From the NCBI GenBank assembly GCA_009777235.1, contig WRMH01000015.1:1-64000 (forward strand): DNA of 64,000 bases, given 5' to 3'. Origin of the DNA: Oscillospiraceae bacterium (GTDB taxonomy: Bacteria > Bacillota > Clostridia > Oscillospirales > Oscillospiraceae). Both the position numbers and the translations under genes were made by a program. Positions 2,947 to 54,103 of the stretch are shown one piece after another. Below the pieces are notes generated by a model that saw only the letters and a list, made by a program, of their open reading frames with translations, was not told where the DNA came from and made no database searches. Within the stretch, counting starts at the first letter, position 1, and each line of letters opens with the position of its first letter.

Positions 2947-3486
2947 ATGGTCGATAATCAGATTACGCCCGAACAACTGGATCATGCGCTTGCAAAGCTA
3001 AAGGATACAATCTCAAAGCAATCCCCTAAAAAGCAGGCTATCCTCATAAAATGGATTACAAACTGGAGCCGGTACATCATGCTGGAGGACACCTTTAAGC
3101 CGGATTATGTACCACGGTATAGACGCGGGGATATTGTCTATGTGGACTTTGGATTCAATGTTGGTAACGAATATGGCGGTATCCACTATGCGGCGGTGCT
3201 GGAACACGATAACCACAAAACAAGCGGAAATATCATGGTAATACCGCTTACTTCATTAGAAGCAGGGAAAACATCTGCCGATGTTGCGAGAGCAGATTTA
3301 TACTTGGGTAGTGGTATTATCCCGTGGACACCATTTGATACAGTTGCAAAGCCCTCCCAAATAAGAGCGGTCAGTAAAATGCGGATTATCAAACCACTTA
3401 GGAAAGGCGATAAATGGGCGCGGTTAACACCTGAACACTTGGATGCCATCGACGAGAAAATTAAACAGGCAATCACAAAAAAGTAA
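2947..3486 (+). CDS. MazF/PemK-like toxin-family protein with N-terminal extension
   Basis: The protein has 179 residues from the ATG at 2947, which follows GAAAGAGG with about 9 bases of spacing. A TTG three codons upstream lies too close to that site. The C-terminal ~120 residues match the PemK/MazF endoribonuclease fold: RYRRGDIVYVDFG, then the GGIHYAAVLEHDN segment, VIPLTS, and a late helix (LTPEHLDAIDEKI). The first ~60 residues are a helical extension not found in short MazF toxins, which are about 110 residues. No MazE-type antitoxin precedes it. Longer solitary versions occur in Firmicutes and may be housekeeping or inactive, so I do not assume toxicity. Confidence 0.75.
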   Translation: MVDNQITPEQLDHALAKLKDTISKQSPKKQAILIKWITNWSRYIMLEDTFKPDYVPRYRRGDIVYVDFGFNVGNEYGGIHYAAVLEHDNHKTSGNIMVIPLTSLEAGKTSADVARADLYLGSGIIPWTPFDTVAKPSQIRAVSKMRIIKPLRKGDKWARLTPEHLDAIDEKIKQAITKK

Positions 3487-3590
3487 GTGTTTACATATCC
3501 GACGAGGAGTGTTATAATAGCGGTGTAGTTTGTAAAAGCTAATTCTGCCCCTTGCGGGCCAAACAAAATTGATTCTGCCTTTCGCGGGCC

Positions 3591-3622
3591 GGGAACGCCG
3601 GGTTTATACCCGGCGACTTCCC
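3591..3622 (+). terminator. GC-rich hairpin after the MazF-like gene
   Basis: CGCCGGGT (3596-3603) pairs with ACCCGGCG (3608-3615) around TTAT, extended by GGGAA with TTCCC, then CATTTTAG. Two near-identical 20-base stretches ending in GCGGGCC (3541-3560 and 3571-3590) precede it. The rest of 3487-3778 shows no gene. Confidence 0.4.
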
Positions 3623-3778
3623 ATTTTAGACTGTATTCTTGTCTATTTATCAAAGAACGAGGACACCCGCACAAGCATCCTCACCCACAGTCTCCCCTAT
3701 CGCTGTTTCTCCAATGCCGCTACGCAGCCTATCTGTCAAAAGAGGCTACGGACAATACATTATCAACTTTCGGTCAAT

Positions 3779-5221
3779 TTAAAAAACAGCATCCCACGCC
3801 GCAAGCGCCAAGTCTGTGCAAAGGTCAATCATGCCGCTTTCAAGGCGGGCAATGGACGCGCCCGTTGTTATCACAACAACGCCTCGGTTGGGATTTGTTT
3901 GATAGACATATTGCGCGTATATGCCATACGAGCTGCCCGTATGCCAGTAAAACCCTTCATTGTCAATAAAACCGCCCACCGAATATCTTGTCGCCAGCCC
4001 TTGCATATAATCATAGCCCTCCACATTCGCGTCGTGAAACTCCTGCGTAGACTCGGCGGATAAAATCATAACGTCGTCAAAGCTCCCCTCGCTTCCGAGC
4101 ATAGCTAATATCCTTGCAAAATCGAACGCGCTTATCGTCAAGCTTCCGTGCGCTAAATGCAAATCATTGCCCGGAATGTCGGACTGTTCTATGCCAAGCT
4201 GAGATTGTACGGAGCGGGACGGCGTATGATCGCTGTCGTATATGACCGCAATCTCATGTGCCGCGTCTATATTCGCGGCTACAAACGCCGCGTCTATCCC
4301 GAGCGGCTCAAAAATAATTTCACGAGACAGGGTATCTAAAGTCTTTCCCGTGACCCTCTCGCACATAGAGCCCAATACAGCATATCCGAAATTTGAATAC
4401 TCAAAAAAAGTTCCCGGTTTGTTTCTGCGATATGACGAACCTCTTTCTATCAAATACTTCACAGGCTCCGATGAGTTTCTGTCACGCGACACCTGATATG
4501 CTCCCGAGTCAAATATTGATGAAGTATGCTGCATTAACATTCGCGTTGTGATGGGTGTGTCCGGAAAATGTACATTTCTTACCTCATACCCAAAATAATT
4601 TGAAACGTCGGTATCTAAGTCAATATATCCTTCATCAACAAGGTATAAAGCGCAAATCGCGACTATTACCTTAGATAATGAAGCCACGCGAAACTTCGTG
4701 TCAGTCATCGCTTCACGTTTTGCCTCAATATCCGCATGACCGTACTCGTATGTAAAATACTCGCCCGTATCTCCGTCATAGACAACCAAACTTACCGCCG
4801 CGCTGTTGTACGCGCTCGATATTTGATCAAGTATTTCGGGCATATCGGACATAGCCTCCGATATATCAATCCTTTTCGCGTCAAAAGGCGAGAGCGGGCC
4901 GGTCGGCAGGCTTCGGGCATTTAGGTTGTTTTGATTGTCATCGTTTGCGTTTGGCGTTGGGGCATCGCTGCCCGCCGCGTCATTTTGATCGCCCGATTGA
5001 TCTGTGTTTTGGAGGCCGTCGCCATTATCGTCAAAAGGCGCGGGAGATAAATACGGTATGTCTCCGCTCAAATTTTTGGAAATTATCATAAACCACGGCA
5101 CTGCCGCTAAGATAATAATCGCACAAAGCACCACAATTGCCGCGCCGGCTTTTCCGTTTTTATTTTTAATTAAATCAATTGTCAAACGAATTGCCACGTC
5201 TTTTTTGCCTCTATCTGTCAT
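3779..5221 (-). CDS. Membrane-anchored serine hydrolase, beta-lactamase/penicillin-binding (class C-like) family
   Basis: The product has 480 residues. One membrane segment lies near residues 25-50 (GAAIVVLCAIIILAAVPWF), followed by an Asp/Asn-rich linker and an extracellular beta-lactamase-fold domain. The catalytic motifs are visible: SxxK in ASLSKVI, the Tyr-Ser-Asn motif in FEYSNFGY and HTG in YWHTGSSYG. Members act as D-alanyl-D-alanine peptidases or esterases, and true beta-lactamase activity cannot be inferred. The reading frame extends upstream to 5356, but those 45 codons derive from a duplicated piece of the metallophosphoesterase gene. I chose ATG 5221 because the equivalent ATG overlaps the intact phosphoesterase stop at 11720-11723, showing the ancestral start. 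Confidence 0.85.
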   Translation of the reverse strand: MTDRGKKDVAIRLTIDLIKNKNGKAGAAIVVLCAIIILAAVPWFMIISKNLSGDIPYLSPAPFDDNGDGLQNTDQSGDQNDAAGSDAPTPNANDDNQNNLNARSLPTGPLSPFDAKRIDISEAMSDMPEILDQISSAYNSAAVSLVVYDGDTGEYFTYEYGHADIEAKREAMTDTKFRVASLSKVIVAICALYLVDEGYIDLDTDVSNYFGYEVRNVHFPDTPITTRMLMQHTSSIFDSGAYQVSRDRNSSEPVKYLIERGSSYRRNKPGTFFEYSNFGYAVLGSMCERVTGKTLDTLSREIIFEPLGIDAAFVAANIDAAHEIAVIYDSDHTPSRSVQSQLGIEQSDIPGNDLHLAHGSLTISAFDFARILAMLGSEGSFDDVMILSAESTQEFHDANVEGYDYMQGLATRYSVGGFIDNEGFYWHTGSSYGIYAQYVYQTNPNRGVVVITTGASIARLESGMIDLCTDLALAAWDAVF

Positions 5222-5373: not shown

Positions 5374-8300
5374 TGGTTCAAAAATCGCAATGAGAATAAT
5401 ATCCACAGTTGCAATGAAACTGTATTCCATGTCGGTACTAATGATGTTTCCATTTTCATCCTGCCAATGCATGAACAACCAACCGTCACTCAATATGGCT
5501 GTGGCTGTTATCGTTTCGCCAACAAGTATGTCATTTTCAATTTCACTATCTGGTAATATAATTAAAACTGTAATATTAACATCATCGATACCCTCCGACT
5601 CCACGCCGTCTTTGTCAGGCAGCTCCATGCCCCTCAGTACAGGATAGCCCGCCTCGCCCATTTCCCAAACGTCCTCGAAGTCCCATCCGACATATGTGGT
5701 GATGTCTGACATCTGTGCCGTGCTGCGCCCTTCGGCACTCCCGTTCGTGAGCGGTACCAAATCCTTGTTGAAGTAGCTGCTCACTACCGTCCCGCCGGTG
5801 CCGCGGAAGCCCTTGGTGTGCGTAGATGTCGTATAGCAGTTCTCAACCCTGCCGCTTGTTGCCGATGCCCACCCTAAGAAACCGGCTGTGTTGTTGATGC
5901 TGTTGTTGCTGATGCTGCTCCCTAATACATTCCCCGTTGAGTAGCAGTCCTTTACAAGGCTTGTTGATACAATGCCTCCAACAAATCCGCCTACTTCCGA
6001 TGTGCCTTCCACATTCCCCGTGGCGTAGCACTGCTCTATCCTATCGGTAATTGAATACCCGACAAACCCACCGGTACACGAAGTGCCTTTCACTTCGGCG
6101 GTCGCAAATGACCTGAGTATCCTGCCCGTGCTGTTAACGCCGACAAACCCACCGGTATAGTTCTTGCCGCTTACCAAGAGCCCGCCGGTGACTGAGCTGC
6201 CGATGATCCGCCCGCCGCTGTTTCTACCGACAAACCCGCCGATGTAGCAGCTGCTCGTCCCTCCGGCTGTGACCGTTCCTCCCATTACGGATACATCACT
6301 TATCACGCCGCTGTTCTGACCCGCTAAACCGCCAACGTAGCTGCGACCCGTTACTTGGACATTTTCTAAGGTTAGATTCTTTACCAGCCCGTTAGTGTTG
6401 CCAAACATGCCGACGTAATCTTGCTCTGGCAGATTGACCGTAAGGTTGCTGATGGTATGCCCGTTGCCGTCTAAAATTCCGTTGAACGGGCGGCTGTTTG
6501 TCCCTATCGGAGTCCATGCCACACCGCTTAAATCAATGTCTGCCGTTAGCCGGTATTTTCCCATAATGTTGCTCTGGATCGCCGCAAGCCCTTCCGCCGT
6601 GCTGACTTCTATGTATTCCACGCCGTCCTTGTCAGGCAGCTCCATGCCCCTCAGTACAGGGTAGCCTCCCTCGCCCATTTCCCAAACGTCATCGAAGTCC
6701 CATCCGGCATATGTGGTGATGTCTGACATCTGTGCCGTGCTGCGCCCTTCGGCACTCCCGTTCGTGAGCGGTACTAAATCCTTGTTGAAGTAGCTGCTCA
6801 CCACCGTCCCGCCGTTGCTGCGTAAACCGTTGATGTGCGTAGATATCGTGTAGCAGTTCTCAACCCTCTCGGAGTTCGACAATATTCTTCCTACGAAACC
6901 GGCTACGTTGTTGCCGCTCCCTAATACATTCCCCGTTGAGTAGCAGTCCTTCATAAGGCTGGTTGATGTAACGTACCCAACAAATCCGCCTACTTCCGAT
7001 GTGCCTTCCACATTCCCCGTGGCGTAGCACTGCTCTATCCTATCGTTACTTGAATACCCGGCAAAACCGCCAACGTACGAAGTGCCTTTCACTTCGGCGG
7101 TCGCAAATGACCTGAGTATCCTGCCCGCGCTGTTAACGCCGACAAACCCGCCCGTGTAGTTCTTGCCGCTTACCAAGAGCCCGCCGGTGACAGAGCTGCC
7201 GATGATCCGCCCGCCGCTGTTTGTACCGACAAACCCGCCGATGTAGCAACTGCTCGTCCCTCCGGCTGTGACCCTTCCTCCCATTACGGATACATCACTT
7301 ATCGCGCCGCTGTTCTGACCCGCTAAACCGCCGACGTAGCTGCGACCCGTCACTTGGACGTTTTCTAAGGTTAGATTCTTTACCATACCCTGCGTGTACC
7401 CGAACATGCCGACGTAATCTTGGCCGATTACAGTTATGTCCTTCAATGTCAAATTCTTTACAGAACCTCTGTTATATCCGAAGAAGCCGACATAATCTTG
7501 CGTTGGCCGATCAATATTCAAGTTGTGAATGGTAAAACCATTACCGTCAAGCACCCCAGTAAACGGACGGCTGTTTGTCCCGATAGGTATCCAGTTTATC
7601 CCGCTAAGGTCAATGTCCGCAACCAAACGGTATGGCATAAACAAGCCATTACGGATTTCCATAAGTTCCTCAGCAGTTCCAATCTCTATAACCTCAAACA
7701 AGTCGCTCAGAGAGATGGTGCTGCCATCCGAAAAAACAATGCTGTAATGAGTTGTCAAAGCAAAATTCTTAAGAATAATCTTGCCGGAGCCATTGACAAT
7801 GCTGATTATCAAATCGGTATCGGCTGATGTAACCAGAATCTCATTTTGATTTATTCCGTCCAGAAGGAATATTGTGTTGCCGGCGCCTTCGTTATTGCCG
7901 CTTTCGTCAATAATCGTGTTTGTGCCGAAGTCCCTGCCTAAGAAGTATATATTGTCGCCCATACCGCTTCTTATGGTGTTATTCCCACTTTTAACCCAGA
8001 ATATATTGCCTGCATTCGCCCCTACAAGATTATCGTTTCCGGCAGTTCCGAAAACCATGTTCTTATCCGCCATGTCAACGAGCATACCATATCTGACGTT
8101 CTCTTGGGCAAGCGGGTTTCTGAGGCTATCCATGTCGACGTGTTCAAGTAAAGTCAGCGCGTACATATTTGTGATAAAGCTAATAATCAGCTTTTCGTCT
8201 TGCGCTTGATTTTTCGATATCTCCCAAATAATCTGATCCGCGACATCGGTCATATCAAAAAGCAAACCGTCATTCGTTTCGATTGGGTTCATTTGAGCGT

Positions 8301-10557
8301 AAAGATGATCATAATGTGTCTGTGCCATCAGGGATGCATAAATGGCATTGATGATGTCATCAAACCCTCTGTTAATAACCGCCATCGCATTTGCCCCCGT
8401 ACCGCCGGCGTAGCTTTCTGCTGCCAACACTTCCATTGCCGCCAGATTGCTATTTTTTCCCGTCCAACGGTGGATGATTTGCGGAATCAAGGCTCTCCGC
8501 ACAGAATCATTCTGCTCCCCGGCAAACTGCTCGACCAGCCCTTGAAGCTGCCCTCCGGTATCCCGCATCATGGCTTGATGCAAACTATAAATTGTACCAA
8601 AACCGCGTATATCCGGCAGTAGGCTTACTTCCTCACTGACGGGGACTTGCCCATTGGCGATAGAATCTATCGCGTCTTTTGCAAACCAAACGTCAACGAT
8701 ATCGCGAATTTCCCAGTCTGCCATTGTTACCGTGCTGATTTGCAAATGATGATTGCCTTGCGCGTCAATGATATCTATGCCTTCGTAATCAAGGTTAATG
8801 GAAACAATGCCGAGTTCCTCCGGTGTATACAATTCGCCCGTCTCAGATATTCCGTTGCTGTTTTTATCGATCCATACATAGACTTCGCTCCATGCTTCGT
8901 CATTGGCATCAAAAACACCGTCTTCATTGCTGTCCAAATTTTTTAGCGCTTCAAAGCCGTTTGCGGCCAAAAGCCCATTTTGGAGCAGTGTGTTGTCGCC
9001 GAATAACTGCCGGCCATTGGTTATATTTCCGTTACCGTTGATATCACGTACCAAAAGGCCGCTGTTGGGGCCGACCCAGCCGGTTTTGATTTTAAACCCA
9101 TTTCCTGCATGGTCAAAATACACGCCGCTGTTCAGCGAAAGGGTATCAATACCATTTCCGTCCAAATCGATGATCAGCGGGGATATTGCCTTGCTGCCGG
9201 CGTTAAATGTTCTTGGGATTTCACCCACACGGATGCTGACGACTTTACCTGTTAAGTCCTTCATTTTTGTGCTTATTTTATTTAAATCGGCCAATACATT
9301 TTCCGGTGTATCGCCCGATACTGACTTTTTGTCAGACTCTATTGACTCGCTGTCTCGGATAGCTGCAATATGATAAGTGCATTTTCTGTCTATGCTATCC
9401 ACTACATAGACCAGAAGGCCGTTGTTCTCATTCCCTTGCACTCTGTATGTGTGGATCAATTCGTAGCTTGTAGAACCCCATGGGAGCCATGAAGTTTTTG
9501 AACGGTAAATTTGATAGGAAGTAGCCCCCTCCACAGCCGGCCAACTCAGTACAGTTTGTTTGCCGGAGTCATCATCTGCTATGGTGACGCTCAGGACAGG
9601 TTTGCTCAGCGGATTTGCCGCACGATATTCATCGCGTTCTTTTAGATAATCGATGAATATCTGAAACTCGCCGTCAAGCTCAGCGATTTGGGCGGTAATG
9701 CTATCTTTCAAAGCAAAAACTGTTTCACTTTGCGGAGTGTTGTTAAGGAGATAGATAAGGGGCAAATAATCCCCGCTCGCCGAAATAAAATCGCTTAGCG
9801 CTATGCGCATATTTACAAGCTGCTCTCTCTGCTGATAGTAATTATCAAGTTGTGTATACATCCCGGACGTTTGAAACAAATCTTCAATTGTCTCGCAAAG
9901 GGATGGCTGATATTCTCCAAATGCCTCAATAAAAATGGTGAGGTAAGTTTCATTTTTTATACGCACAAGCTCAAGCAGATCTTTCACGGGTCCCTGCAGC
10001 AAAGCGTTGCCTATGTCAACCGGCACGGCTATGATATGCCCTAAGCCCGGCGCAACGAATTTTAACGTGTTGCTGAACATGTTGAAAAAGCTGCTTGCGC
10101 TTCCTACATAGTCAACCAATGCCGCATATTGATTTTCAGGAAAGGCGTTTTTATATATGTTATAACGAAAGATTAGATTTCCTAAGTCAGTAGCTGTATC
10201 TGTAACAAAAAGCAAGTTTCCTAAATATGTACCCATGTTGTTTCCAAACGCTTCATTTATGCCTAAGATTGCGGCTTCCATTACTAAATCGTTCGGCTGC
10301 GCGTCACGAATACTGTTGAGCAAATCCAACGCGCTCAGCGAAGAATTATGCGCACCTGAATCAAGCGCCATCTGTGCCAGTAATTGAAATAATTCCGCTT
10401 GGCTTTGAACACTTTGCAAAGCCTCTTGTTCTTCAGGCGTAAATTCGAAATCGTCGGAGGTATTGGCTTTTGCGGATGGTGCAAAGGAAAGCGACAGTGC
10501 GATAATTGTTGCGAGTACCAGAGCGCAGCCCATTATGCGGCTTATATGTTTTTTCAT
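5362..10557 (-). CDS. Secreted 1731-residue RTX-like/GLUG-repeat surface protein
   Basis: A signal peptide (residues 1-31, ending PSAKA) leads a helical region to about 310 and a fibronectin-III-like domain at about 318-410 (TVLSWPAVEGATSYQIYRS). Next comes the Asp/Gly-rich module common in RTX adhesins at about 460-610 (IIDLDGNGIDTLSL, LVRDINGNGNITNGRQLFGD, DSNEDGVFDANDE), a likely Ca2+ binder. An RTX-like stretch starts near 839 (GTAGNDNLVGANAGN). From about 990 to 1650 are two near-identical blocks of GLUG motifs (YVGGLAGQNSG, YIGGFVG). The C-terminal ~65 residues resemble an InlB-type B repeat (FMHWQDENGNIIST). There is no LPXTG, SLH or dockerin anchor. RTX modules are uncommon in this phylum. 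The last codons and stop come from the duplicated phosphoesterase piece. Role inferred: adhesion or surface matrix. Confidence 0.85.
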   Translation of the reverse strand: MKKHISRIMGCALVLATIIALSLSFAPSAKANTSDDFEFTPEEQEALQSVQSQAELFQLLAQMALDSGAHNSSLSALDLLNSIRDAQPNDLVMEAAILGINEAFGNNMGTYLGNLLFVTDTATDLGNLIFRYNIYKNAFPENQYAALVDYVGSASSFFNMFSNTLKFVAPGLGHIIAVPVDIGNALLQGPVKDLLELVRIKNETYLTIFIEAFGEYQPSLCETIEDLFQTSGMYTQLDNYYQQREQLVNMRIALSDFISASGDYLPLIYLLNNTPQSETVFALKDSITAQIAELDGEFQIFIDYLKERDEYRAANPLSKPVLSVTIADDDSGKQTVLSWPAVEGATSYQIYRSKTSWLPWGSTSYELIHTYRVQGNENNGLLVYVVDSIDRKCTYHIAAIRDSESIESDKKSVSGDTPENVLADLNKISTKMKDLTGKVVSIRVGEIPRTFNAGSKAISPLIIDLDGNGIDTLSLNSGVYFDHAGNGFKIKTGWVGPNSGLLVRDINGNGNITNGRQLFGDNTLLQNGLLAANGFEALKNLDSNEDGVFDANDEAWSEVYVWIDKNSNGISETGELYTPEELGIVSINLDYEGIDIIDAQGNHHLQISTVTMADWEIRDIVDVWFAKDAIDSIANGQVPVSEEVSLLPDIRGFGTIYSLHQAMMRDTGGQLQGLVEQFAGEQNDSVRRALIPQIIHRWTGKNSNLAAMEVLAAESYAGGTGANAMAVINRGFDDIINAIYASLMAQTHYDHLYAQMNPIETNDGLLFDMTDVADQIIWEISKNQAQDEKLIISFITNMYALTLLEHVDMDSLRNPLAQENVRYGMLVDMADKNMVFGTAGNDNLVGANAGNIFWVKSGNNTIRSGMGDNIYFLGRDFGTNTIIDESGNNEGAGNTIFLLDGINQNEILVTSADTDLIISIVNGSGKIILKNFALTTHYSIVFSDGSTISLSDLFEVIEIGTAEELMEIRNGLFMPYRLVADIDLSGINWIPIGTNSRPFTGVLDGNGFTIHNLNIDRPTQDYVGFFGYNRGSVKNLTLKDITVIGQDYVGMFGYTQGMVKNLTLENVQVTGRSYVGGLAGQNSGAISDVSVMGGRVTAGGTSSCYIGGFVGTNSGGRIIGSSVTGGLLVSGKNYTGGFVGVNSAGRILRSFATAEVKGTSYVGGFAGYSSNDRIEQCYATGNVEGTSEVGGFVGYVTSTSLMKDCYSTGNVLGSGNNVAGFVGRILSNSERVENCYTISTHINGLRSNGGTVVSSYFNKDLVPLTNGSAEGRSTAQMSDITTYAGWDFDDVWEMGEGGYPVLRGMELPDKDGVEYIEVSTAEGLAAIQSNIMGKYRLTADIDLSGVAWTPIGTNSRPFNGILDGNGHTISNLTVNLPEQDYVGMFGNTNGLVKNLTLENVQVTGRSYVGGLAGQNSGVISDVSVMGGTVTAGGTSSCYIGGFVGRNSGGRIIGSSVTGGLLVSGKNYTGGFVGVNSTGRILRSFATAEVKGTSCTGGFVGYSITDRIEQCYATGNVEGTSEVGGFVGGIVSTSLVKDCYSTGNVLGSSISNNSINNTAGFLGWASATSGRVENCYTTSTHTKGFRGTGGTVVSSYFNKDLVPLTNGSAEGRSTAQMSDITTYVGWDFEDVWEMGEAGYPVLRGMELPDKDGVESEGIDDVNITVLIILPDSEIENDILVGETITATAILSDGWLFMHWQDENGNIISTDMEYSFIATVDIILIAIFEPLDS
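5601..7640 (-). repeat. Tandem 1017-bp repeat inside the GLUG region
   Basis: The block 5601-6617 recurs at 6618-7634 with a period of 1017 bases (339 codons); for example CCACGCCGTC lies at 5601 and 6618. Most of the unit is almost identical at DNA level, including silent sites, while its far end (upper coordinates) has diverged. Each unit encodes a lead-in (YRLTADIDLSG, IGTNSRPF.G.LDGNG) and about seven GLUG motifs, closing with WDF.DVWEMGE.GYPVLRGMEL. The pattern indicates a fairly recent duplication or ongoing gene conversion. Confidence 0.85.
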
Positions 10558-52195: not shown

Positions 52196-52292
52196 TGTAC
52201 AAAATATACAAAATATGCTATAATGACCGCGAGCGGTTATTATAGCAATGATTTTAGTCCTTTTCCTCGCCGCTGACGCGGCAACCGGAAAT
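52196..52292 (+). ncRNA. Promoter plus two-hairpin leader element D2 of the nrdR operon
   Basis: TGTACA (52196-52201) and TATAAT (52219-52224) are 17 bases apart. The -10 is the left arm of an inverted repeat at 52219-52244 (stem ACCG/CGGT, loop CGAG, mirrored ATTATA). After GATTTTAGTC comes hairpin 2 at 52261-52291: TTTCC-TC-GCCGC-TGAC-GCGGC-AACC-GGAAA. Compared with D1 (23205-23303) the internal loop TC/AACC is kept, while three stem positions change on both sides. The nrdR start is 31 bases further on. The family is unknown to me. Confidence 0.5.
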
Positions 52293-52322: not shown

Positions 52323-52775
52323 ATGAAATGCCCTTTTTGCGGATTTGCCGAAAGTAAAGTAGTAGATTCAAGGCCGGCGGAGGAAGGCGCCACAATACGC
52401 CGCCGCAGGGAATGTCTTAGTTGCCAAAAACGCTTTACCACATATGAAATTATGGAAAGATTGCCGCTTATCGTAGTAAAGAAAGATGGCAGCAGACAAA
52501 CATTCGATAAGCAAAAACTCATCAACGGTATGCTCAGAGCCTGTGAAAAACGCCCCGTGCCTCTCATTGAGCTTACCACGGTTGCGGACGAAATCGAACA
52601 AGACCTCCAAAACTCATTAGAGCGTGAAATAAAAACCACAGGTATCGGAGAGATGATAATGGGCAAATTAAAAGCCCTTGACGAAGTCGCGTATGTCAGA
52701 TTTGCCTCGGTTTACCGCCAATTCCGTGACATCAACTCTTTTATGGATGAACTAAACAGACTGCTAAAAGATTAG
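52323..52775 (+). CDS. nrdR: Transcriptional regulator NrdR
   Basis: The 150-residue protein represses ribonucleotide reductase genes in response to ATP/dATP. The zinc ribbon is [15 protein letters not shown]...[16 protein letters not shown] (residues 3-42), and the ATP-cone follows from about 49 ([21 protein letters not shown]...). The length is standard. The gene opens a four-gene unit with three V-ATPase-like stalk genes, the first starting about 11 bases after its stop. Confidence 0.96.
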
Positions 52776-52786
52776 GGGTGATTAGC

Positions 52787-53104
52787 TTGTCGGCTGATGC
52801 AATAAAGCGTATTCTTGCCGCTGAGTATGAGGGCAATCAAGTAAAGATTATCGTTCATGATAGATCAAAAGAATCTATCGCCGCTGTACACGCTGAGTGT
52901 GAAAAAAATGCAGCGGACGTACTTAGCAGGGCGAAAACCGAAATCGAGCAACTAAAGCACGCGACCGACCGCAAAGCGATGGATGCGGCTGCCGACCTTG
53001 CTTCCACAACGGAAAACCGCCTTGCCGCCATGAGCGCCCGCGCTGAGAAACGCCTTGATATGGTTGCCGAACGTATTTACGAAAGGATCGTGAACATCGA
53101 ATGA
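52787..53104 (+). CDS. V-type ATPase subunit G/H-like coiled-coil protein
   Basis: The 105-residue protein is almost entirely coiled coil, Ala/Glu/Lys-rich (AECEKNAADVLSRAKTEIEQLKHA), ending AERIYERIVNIE. It resembles bacterial and archaeal V/A-type ATPase subunit G (AtpH/NtpF type), which pairs with subunit E as peripheral stalk. AGGGGTGA lies 5 bases before TTG 52787, favouring it over an in-frame GTG at 52778 that overlaps the site. The stop overlaps the next start (ATGA). Coiled coils match easily, so the call rests mostly on the neighbours. Confidence 0.6.
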   Translation: MSADAIKRILAAEYEGNQVKIIVHDRSKESIAAVHAECEKNAADVLSRAKTEIEQLKHATDRKAMDAAADLASTTENRLAAMSARAEKRLDMVAERIYERIVNIE

Positions 53105-53532
53105 GTCAAATGAAAAAGCTCACACTCGCAGCTTCGCACACGGATATCGTAAATATCATAAGCGAACTGATTTTGCTTGAATGTCTTGAGCCGACCGAAC
53201 CTATTATTGAGCTTGACCCGCCGGAGCTTACAAGCCTGCTGCGGCGCGAGGTCATGGAGCTTTCCGATTATGGCGCGAACTATGAGAGCATTGTAGTCTT
53301 TGCCACCCAATACACCTATATACTCTCGGGCTGGCTGCCCGTTGAATATGAATCCGAGCTTACCACCATGCTCGGAACCCATATATGCGCGTGGGACATA
53401 ATAGACCCATACCCATACGACTATGACGATATACCCGTGCTGCTCAAGTTTCCGCAGCTTTTTACAAAGATGAGAAGCGGCGGCCGAAGAGTGTTCGAGC
53501 CCTTATCAAAAGCAAACGGCCCATCATATTGA
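53101..53532 (+). CDS. Miniature V-type ATPase subunit I-like protein without membrane domain
   Basis: The 143-residue protein resembles only the cytoplasmic part of subunit I (AtpI/NtpI, normally about 600-680 residues). Its start MKKLTLAASHTDIVNIISELILLECLEP matches the N-terminal strand-helix that begins MxKlxL. The later TYILSGWLPVEYESELTTML and DIPVLLKFPQLFTKM match the GWVP and (V)PVLLKNPK segments. The intervening coiled coil of roughly 150 residues is missing, as are all seven or so membrane helices that form the ion half-channel. The gene is intact, in frame, and coupled to the G-like gene by a 4-base overlap. Confidence 0.6.
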   Translation: MSQMKKLTLAASHTDIVNIISELILLECLEPTEPIIELDPPELTSLLRREVMELSDYGANYESIVVFATQYTYILSGWLPVEYESELTTMLGTHICAWDIIDPYPYDYDDIPVLLKFPQLFTKMRSGGRRVFEPLSKANGPSY

Positions 53533-53541
53533 GTCAAATTA

Positions 53542-53624
53542 TAAACCGCTTATCATTTCACAGGCGAGAGACGGTAAGCATACGCGCTCATAATTATTTG
53601 TGTCGCCTGTGAAATGGCGGTTTA
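53542..53624. repeat. Inverted repeat between the I-like and E-like genes
   Basis: TAAACCGC and ATTTCACAGGCGA (53542-53567) pair with TCGCCTGTGAAAT and GCGGTTTA (53603-53624), with a small bulge. The loop is 35 bases. It occupies the place where the proteolipid (K/c) subunit gene lies in complete V-ATPase operons, and its right arm covers the leader of the E-like gene, so it may limit that gene's translation. The region between the arms codes nothing visible. Confidence 0.65.
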
Positions 53625-53626
53625 AT

Positions 53627-54043
53627 ATGCAAAATCTCGACAAAATACTTTTACACATCAAAACCGAATCCGAAAACGAATGTAAGGCTATCGCAATGAA
53701 GGCCAATAATGATTGCCGCCGGCTCCGCTCGGAGTATTCCAAAAAAGAGCAAGATGATTATTGGAATTATGTAAACACCGGAACGAAAGAAATTGATAAG
53801 CGGGCAGGAGAACTCGCGGCTCTTGCAGCCGAAGAAGCAAAAAAGAAGGTTTACGCTGTGCAGCAATACATGATTGACAGAGTCTTGGCGCTGGCCGCGA
53901 GAAAGCTGTCGGCATTGCCGACCCGCGCATACAACGACATCCTCGAAAAGTTCAAGATAGAGCCGGGTCTAAAGCCGGAGTTTCTGGTGGAACATTTTAG
54001 GGAAGACCTCACCCCCAGCGTCACAAGAGCACTATTTGACTAA
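53627..54043 (+). CDS. Shortened V-type ATPase subunit E-like protein
   Basis: The 138-residue protein begins with a long charged helix (MQNLDKILLHIKTESENEC, then KAIAMKANNDCRRLRSEYSKK), as in subunit E of V/A-type ATPases (normally about 190-200 residues). It ends LTPSVTRALFD, like the conserved RPEIA.LLF ending. About 50 residues of the globular C-terminal domain between these parts are missing. The start codon ATG 53627 has only a weak ribosome site (GGCGG); an in-frame GTG at 53600 lies inside the inverted repeat. A strong terminator follows, and no subunits C, F, A, B or D are downstream. Confidence 0.6.
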   Translation: MQNLDKILLHIKTESENECKAIAMKANNDCRRLRSEYSKKEQDDYWNYVNTGTKEIDKRAGELAALAAEEAKKKVYAVQQYMIDRVLALAARKLSALPTRAYNDILEKFKIEPGLKPEFLVEHFREDLTPSVTRALFD

Positions 54044-54067
54044 TCCCCTATCAAAGCGCACTACGAT

Positions 54068-54103
54068 AATCCGGTATGCCCAAAAGACATACCGGATTTT
54101 TCA
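54068..54103 (+). terminator. Terminator of the nrdR operon
   Basis: AATCCGGTATG pairs with CATACCGGATT around nine bases, followed by TTTTC. It lies 24 bases after the E-like stop, ending the unit before the convergent foldase gene. Confidence 0.85.

What the first reader, a model, noticed from the sequence alone, without database searches (positions are those of the whole stretch)
52323..54103. V-ATPase peripheral stalk without a motor, in an operon with nrdR
Seen: three intact small genes follow nrdR with tight spacing and a strong terminator. By motif they resemble V/A-type ATPase subunits G, I and E. Known: complete clostridial operons run roughly I-K-E-C-F-A-B-D, with G near I. Here the ion channel (K and the membrane part of I) and the whole catalytic head are absent, and I and E keep both ends but have lost their middles. 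Inference: either a recently decayed operon in which frames happen to survive, or a retained stalk-like complex reused for something else, with nrdR at its head. The clean in-frame deletions and preserved ATGA overlap favour retention.
Basis: partly seen in the sequence, partly recalled or inferred. Interest (0 to 1): 0.78.

Follow-up and report, generated by a model that had tools for sequence, protein, structure and literature searches.

The report
Motor-less V-ATPase stalk, conserved operon
A group of uncultured bacteria has lost a whole rotary ion pump but still keeps, intact and under selection, the three proteins that once anchored it, so this static part of the machine probably has a job of its own.

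Summary
After nrdR come three intact genes: a full-length subunit G, a 143-aa subunit I and a 138-aa subunit E. I and E lack their middles and keep both ends. The short I is the proximal lobe of the I/a cytosolic domain joined to I's C-terminal tail.

It is not recent decay. The trio, with the same cuts, occurs in 14 of 19 genomes of the window's genus (one clade, support 88/93; rpoB alone did not resolve this), under purifying selection (pN/pS 0.04-0.25 in three close pairs). No V-type A/B, C, D or membrane I was found in 13 of the 14; G001 also has a divergent V-ATPase, perhaps contamination.

Relatives give a series. G003 and G014 hold a complete operon. G017 and G012 lost the I membrane domain by a different cut, and G012 also K, C and D. 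G027, of another genus, keeps G-I-E before broken A/B. So the stalk outlasts the motor in probably three reductions.

Linkage to nrdR is incidental (adjacent in 3 of 14). Best explanation: a soluble EG coiled coil on an I lobe, kept for a motor-independent scaffold or regulatory role. The client is unknown.

The parts
52778..53104 (+). G-like subunit of the V/A-ATPase peripheral stalk, full length for this group (104 aa if it starts at TTG 52790, 108 aa from GTG 52778)
   Evidence: Aligned over its length with G of the complete operons of G014 and G003 (47 and 40% identity); Pfam V-ATPase_G hits 5 of 18 aligned members but not the window's own
53101..53532 (+). I-like protein, 143 aa: proximal lobe of the subunit I/a cytosolic domain fused to the C-terminal tail of I; coiled coil, distal lobe and membrane domain absent
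53627..54043 (+). E-like subunit, 138 aa: long N-terminal helix and C-terminal helices kept, about 61 residues of the globular domain missing
   Evidence: PF01991 29.0 bits; alignment A2; AF2 pLDDT 91, pTM 0.49, helix 2-95; profile hit to subunit E 2dm9 over 1-108, E 0.0018
53101..53104 (+). ATGA overlap of the G stop with the I start (likely translational coupling)
   Evidence: G and I overlap by 1 or 4 nt in 12 of 14 short-operon genomes and in G014 and G003 (coordinates)
53554..53616 (.). perfect 14-bp inverted repeat, 35 nt apart, between I and E (function unknown)
54068..54101 (+). intrinsic-terminator-like hairpin (11-bp stem, 9-nt loop, T-run) after E
   Evidence: read directly from the sequence; not listed by the consensus scan
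52323..52775 (+). nrdR, upstream and co-directional; ordinary gene, linkage not conserved, so a flank rather than a part
   Evidence: TIGR00244 208 bits; adjacent in 3 of 14 short-operon loci

Best explanation
The three genes are what is left of a complete V/A-type ATPase operon: the foot of the stator. G and E should form a coiled-coil heterodimer with one end on the isolated proximal lobe of subunit I, giving a soluble rod with a globular foot and no membrane anchor, rotor or ATPase. It is retained by selection because this unit has a role that does not need the motor, most likely as a scaffold or regulatory adaptor binding another protein or structure. SHOWN: homology, which parts are missing, absence of motor genes in the sampled assemblies, purifying selection in close pairs, shared architecture in 14 genomes that group together, and the reduction series. 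INFERRED: that the three still form a ternary complex, that the role is scaffolding or regulatory, and that it predates loss of the motor. UNKNOWN: the client.
For: Trio adjacent with open frames in 14 of 19 genus genomes, all 14 with the same I and E cuts. Short I appears as 103 database clusters of 138-193 aa, the window's own included. pN/pS 0.04-0.25 in three close pairs (nine gene tests, all Fisher p 3.5e-17 or less). Short genomes form one clade: SH-aLRT 96, 88/93. In 13 of the 14: no PF01496, PF01813 or PF01992; every strong PF00006 hit is F-type or the FliI-like third enzyme (FliI by TIGR03497 in G000). Complete ancestral operon at the corresponding locus in G003, and on two contigs in G014. 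Stalk also kept where the motor is dismantled by other cuts: G017 and G012 and G027, whose congener G151 has the full operon. I-like fold matches subunit I of 8wci, tail included. Rates of G, I and E covary beyond marker distance (r 0.73-0.79).
Against: Relative to markers the trio diverges 1.5-1.6 times faster than G, I and E of the one pair of complete operons, and the G012-G017 pair faster still, so constraint is somewhat relaxed. Over all 91 short pairs, where synonymous sites are near saturation, median pN/pS is 0.41-0.55. rpoB alone needs three changes for the short form and gives one clade in only 6% of bootstrap trees. Rate covariation of G with neighbours surA and PBP is nearly as high (0.69, 0.74). 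The window's G and I pass no curated cut-off alone. No expression, complex or phenotype data exist. G013 (64% complete) has no trio. No dedicated partner gene was found.
Confidence: 0.6

Rival explanations
1. A slowly decaying remnant: the motor became redundant beside an F-type ATPase, and these small genes are simply the last to go, with no current function.
For: Faster divergence than in the complete operons; stepwise losses in several lineages; an F-type ATPase is present in the short-operon genomes (G015: beta only).
Against: No internal stop in G, I or E in any of 18 species; strong purifying selection in three close pairs; the same cuts persist through 14 species; in probably three lineages motor genes go and the stalk stays.
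Confidence: 0.15
2. The three proteins still act, but separately or in altered partnerships (for example I-lobe with something else, G with E as a helical adaptor), not as the inherited ternary stator foot.
For: The I-lobe is predicted as a compact ferredoxin-like fold on its own; helical E and G are generic coiled-coil proteins.
Against: All three are kept together, in order, in 14 of 14 loci, with G-I overlap in 12 of 14; their rates covary.
Confidence: 0.15
3. The trio is an accessory stalk or regulator of another ATPase of the cell, such as the F-type ATPase or the flagellar export ATPase.
For: The F-type ATPase is the obvious remaining rotary enzyme.
Against: The F operon of G000 has its own b and delta, over family cut-offs; G012 and G017 keep the stalk but gave no F-type hit; G004 has the trio but its only two ATP-synt_ab hits are F-type alpha and beta, so no FliI was seen; E has lost most of its head-facing globular domain.
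Confidence: 0.08
4. A motor exists but was missed (assembly gaps or very divergent A/B/D/K), so the trio serves an ordinary V-ATPase.
For: The genomes are incomplete drafts; G001 has both the trio and a divergent V-ATPase. K (PF00137) and F (PF01990) were not searched genome-wide.
Against: Absence is consistent across 13 genomes, well-completed ones included (G002 and G004 98%, G018 96%); the short I has no membrane domain and E lacks its globular middle, so they could hardly couple a motor.
Confidence: 0.04

Closest known systems
V/A-type (bacterial/archaeal) ATPase peripheral stalk: EG heterodimer on the collar made by subunit I/a (PMC6131620, passages seen)
   Same: Same three proteins by homology and synteny; proximal lobe fold of I and its C-terminal tail retained; E/G coiled-coil segments retained
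   Different: No A, B, C or D found, no K or F in the operon and no membrane part; distal lobe of I and the middle of E deleted; no motor to hold still
Cytosolic N-terminal domain (aNT) of eukaryotic V-ATPase a-subunits as a regulatory hub (PMC10313074, passages seen)
   Same: Proximal lobe of the corresponding domain; there it is reported to bind regulators (ARNO, probably RAVE, phosphoinositides)
   Different: There it is part of a working pump with a membrane domain; the passages seen gave no bacterial example
Flagellar/type III export stalk FliH/SctL (recalled, not tested)
   Same: A helical stalk, recalled as related to rotary-ATPase stators, serving a non-pumping role
   Different: FliH still serves an ATPase (FliI); the trio here has none, and no sequence link was tested

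Membership tests
V/A-type ATPase (as a working complex) | Catalytic A and nucleotide-binding B subunits | tested here: not met
   PF00006 in G000: three hits, which are atpA, atpD and FliI by NCBIfam; none beside the trio
V/A-type ATPase (as a working complex) | Rotor subunits D and C | tested here: not met
   PF01813 and PF01992 match 4 of 19 genus genomes (G001, G003, G014, G017), not G000
V/A-type ATPase (as a working complex) | Membrane domain of subunit I/a | tested here: not met
   No PF01496 hit in G000; window I is 143 aa and lacks the membrane region in the alignment
V/A-type ATPase (as a working complex) | Ion-binding ring subunit K | tested here: inconclusive
   Absent from the operon; genome-wide PF00137 search not run
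V-type subunit E family (PF01991) | Score over the curated cut-off | tested here: met
   29.0 bits against 24.2
V-type subunit E family (PF01991) | Complete C-terminal globular domain | tested here: not met
   About 61 residues missing against G003, G014, G012 and G017
V-type subunit I cytosolic domain, proximal lobe | Sequence and fold match to a solved subunit I | tested here: met
V-type subunit G | Homology to G of a complete operon | tested here: met
   40 and 47% identity to G of G003 and G014; PF03179 in 5 of 18 members, not the window's
Functional peripheral stalk complex | Physical EG-I ternary complex | not testable with these tools
   No multimer prediction or binding data available

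The most novel reading that the evidence does not exclude
The V-ATPase stator of these Oscillospiraceae had a second, motor-independent job all along. Loss of the motor in probably three lineages has exposed it as a stand-alone soluble complex (EG coiled coil plus I lobe), a machine built from the static part of a rotary motor and without a counterpart that I know of.
Probability: 0.4. Interest if true: 0.9.

Novelty: new variant of a known kind. Interest (0 to 1): 0.74.

Why it matters
Rotary ATPases are normally seen as all-or-nothing machines. Here is a series of living intermediates in which channel, ring, rotor and catalytic head go and the peripheral stalk stays, trimmed to a minimal module and still under selection. 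If real, it separates stator from motor function, offers a small soluble complex for structural and genetic work, and raises the question of whether intact bacterial V-ATPases also carry a non-pumping function through their stalk.

Tried and rejected
Viral origin: one scan of viral contigs with P0027 found no relative. Tie to FliI: G004 has the trio but its only two ATP-synt_ab hits are F-type. F-type stalk replacement: G000 has its own atpF and atpH. Further family cases of a membrane-less I: G246 (frameshift in an otherwise full operon), G345 (in-frame stop in an otherwise full operon), and G158, G163, G188, G223 (cut by contig ends) were rejected; G168 (near a contig end) and G374 (match at base 57 of its contig) were not followed. 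Foldseek's best matches for the I-like model were other small alpha/beta proteins (CutA, ribosomal proteins, PstA), none at E 0.001 or better and no subunit I among the 50 rows shown. The E model was not compared by fold, as one long helix is uninformative. RpoB alone did not resolve whether the short form arose once; a concatenation of rpoB with neighbouring genes gave one clade. Literature: six searches, read as listings, and passages of two papers; one more paper was searched for ATPase terms and held none. None of the listings showed a motor-less stalk operon; subscription papers are not held, so this is weak evidence of absence in print.

Full report
WHAT IS THERE. The window holds nrdR (52323-52775), a G-like gene (to 53104; start GTG 52778 or, judging by relatives, TTG 52790), an I-like gene (53101-53532, ATGA overlap) and an E-like gene (53627-54043), then a hairpin with a T-run at 54068-54101. 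nrdR is a clear family member (TIGR00244, 208 bits). E passes its Pfam cut-off (PF01991, 29.0 against 24.2 bits). The window's I has only a weak hit to V-type subunit I (NCBIfam E 0.007), and the window's G has no V-ATPase hit, so their identity had to come from relatives.

NO MOTOR IN THIS GENOME. The own genome (2.63 Mb, 58 contigs, 92% complete) has no PF01496 hit, no PF01813 and no PF01992. Its three PF00006 hits are atpA, atpD and FliI by NCBIfam, and the F operon has its own atpF and atpH, all over cut-off in at least one model; an epsilon-like frame follows beta (by eye). In the 13 other short-operon genomes each strong PF00006 hit was fetched and compared with V-type A/B and F-type references: all are F-type alpha or beta of one of two kinds, or the FliI-like enzyme, except one V-type A in G001. 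Two weak hits (G006 C7, G016 C32) matched none of the references. K (PF00137) and F (PF01990) were not searched genome-wide.

CONSERVATION. Of 19 genus genomes (the window's own and 18 others), 14 have the short I with open frames of 145-181 aa, 2 have full-length I (G003, G014), 2 have I of about 350 aa (G012, G017) and 1 (G013, 64% complete) has none. In all 14, G, I and E lie together; a profile of E finds E in 18 of 19, all but G013. The surA-like and DUF1292 genes of the window's locus are beside the trio in 10 of the 13 other short-operon loci. G and I overlap by 1 or 4 nt in 12 of 14. No internal stops occur in G, I or E of any of 18 species. In three close pairs (G008-G009, G005-G011, G002-G010) pN/pS is 0.04-0.25 for each gene, Fisher p between 3.4e-34 and 3.5e-17. 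Over all 91 short pairs, where synonymous differences are near saturation, median pN/pS is 0.41 (G), 0.55 (I) and 0.44 (E). Against full constraint: relative to markers the short pairs diverge 1.5-1.6 times faster than the single pair of complete operons, and the G012-G017 pair faster still. In the 5.8-billion-protein collection a profile of short I found 103 clusters of 138-193 aa, the window's own included (full-length I is outside the lengths searched). Named relatives are five Oscillospiraceae MAGs: Emb289P3bin50, Emb289P3bin58, Lab288P3bin200, Pal332_bin15 and Pal332_bin16. The prefixes Emb289 and Lab288 occur in the higher-termite MAG paper PMC7024585 (search listing only); that this genus lives in termite guts is therefore an inference.

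A SERIES OF INTERMEDIATES. G017 has G-I(357)-K-E-C-A on one contig and B-D on another; its I matches G003 I at 1-330 and then 618-641. No F was seen in these stretches. G012 has only G-I(350)-E-A-B; no C or D was found genome-wide. Its A (568 aa) and B (412 aa, against 460 in G003) are near full length, and the P-loop and GER motif are present in A by eye (motifs recalled). A and B of the G012-G017 pair are under purifying selection (pN/pS 0.29, 0.22). G027, from another genus, has G-I(341)-E followed by a shortened A and B (360 and 295 aa), each matching only about the first half of the nucleotide-binding domain, with GER changed to GAR in A; its congener G151 has a full operon. The concatenated marker trees place the 14 short genomes in one clade (SH-aLRT 96; 88/93) and G012+G017 in another (100), with complete-operon genomes G003 and G014 outside both; deep order is not firmly resolved, and rpoB alone needs three changes for the short form. 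The short form keeps more of the tail upstream of the conserved F.PL than G012 or G017 do, so it is unlikely to descend from their cut. Hence probably three independent reductions, in each of which G, I (at least proximal lobe and tail) and E survive.

NRDR. Of 14 short-operon loci nrdR abuts G in 3 (G000, G008, G009); in 5 another gene lies between; in 2 it lies elsewhere on the other strand; in 4 it is not in the stretch fetched. The linkage is incidental.

MECHANISM. The described architecture (PMC6131620, passages) has EG rods anchored on the I/a collar, holding the head. Here the head-facing parts (E globular middle, A3B3) and the membrane-facing parts are gone, and what remains fits the foot of the stator. 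I infer a soluble EG rod on an I lobe that binds a client. Rate covariation of the three (partial r 0.73-0.79, 14 taxa) fits a complex but is little above that of G with surA or PBP (0.69, 0.74), so it is only suggestive. A link to the F-type enzyme is unlikely because G012 and G017 gave no F-type hit and yet keep the stalk.

CAVEATS. The genomes are drafts. G001 has both the trio and a divergent V-ATPase on other contigs and is 7% contaminated. The functional claim is inference.

Noticed in passing
L116 (G002 C50) 3143-4897: A second F-type operon whose alpha subunit (584 aa) carries a delta/OSCP C-terminal domain at its N-terminus (PF00213, 31.3 bits over cut-off), with no separate delta gene seen; homologous alphas occur in G001 and G005-G011.
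   Followed up: partly
L115 (G003 C4) 9671-9916: In the main F-type operon of G003 the gene at the delta position is only 81 aa and matches just the C-terminal part of delta (PF00213 103-171 of 172).
   Followed up: partly
L045 and L044/L048 (G012, G017): G012 (96% complete) and G017 (85%) gave only V-type A and B hits and no F-type or FliI hit, while their I has no membrane domain: they may lack any ion-translocating ATP synthase.
   Followed up: partly
L105 (G027) 7239-9205: Open but severely shortened A (GER to GAR) and B kept behind G-I-E: possible pseudoenzymes or decaying genes.
   Followed up: partly
window 52196-52247: Promoter-like site upstream of nrdR whose -10 overlaps a 14-pair palindrome, a possible operator; counts of such sites are no higher than in shuffles.
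   Followed up: no
window 53554-53616: Perfect 14-bp inverted repeat 35 nt apart in the I-E gap; not checked for copies elsewhere.
   Followed up: no
L030 10307-11023: A PilZ-domain gene (PF07238, 24.2 bits over cut-off 22.5) lies convergent with E; homologues sit beside E in several relatives, but not in the window.
   Followed up: partly
alignments A1 and A2: Cysteines at I-like positions 28 and 96 and E-like position 19 are invariant in all 18 sequences, full-length forms included.
   Followed up: no
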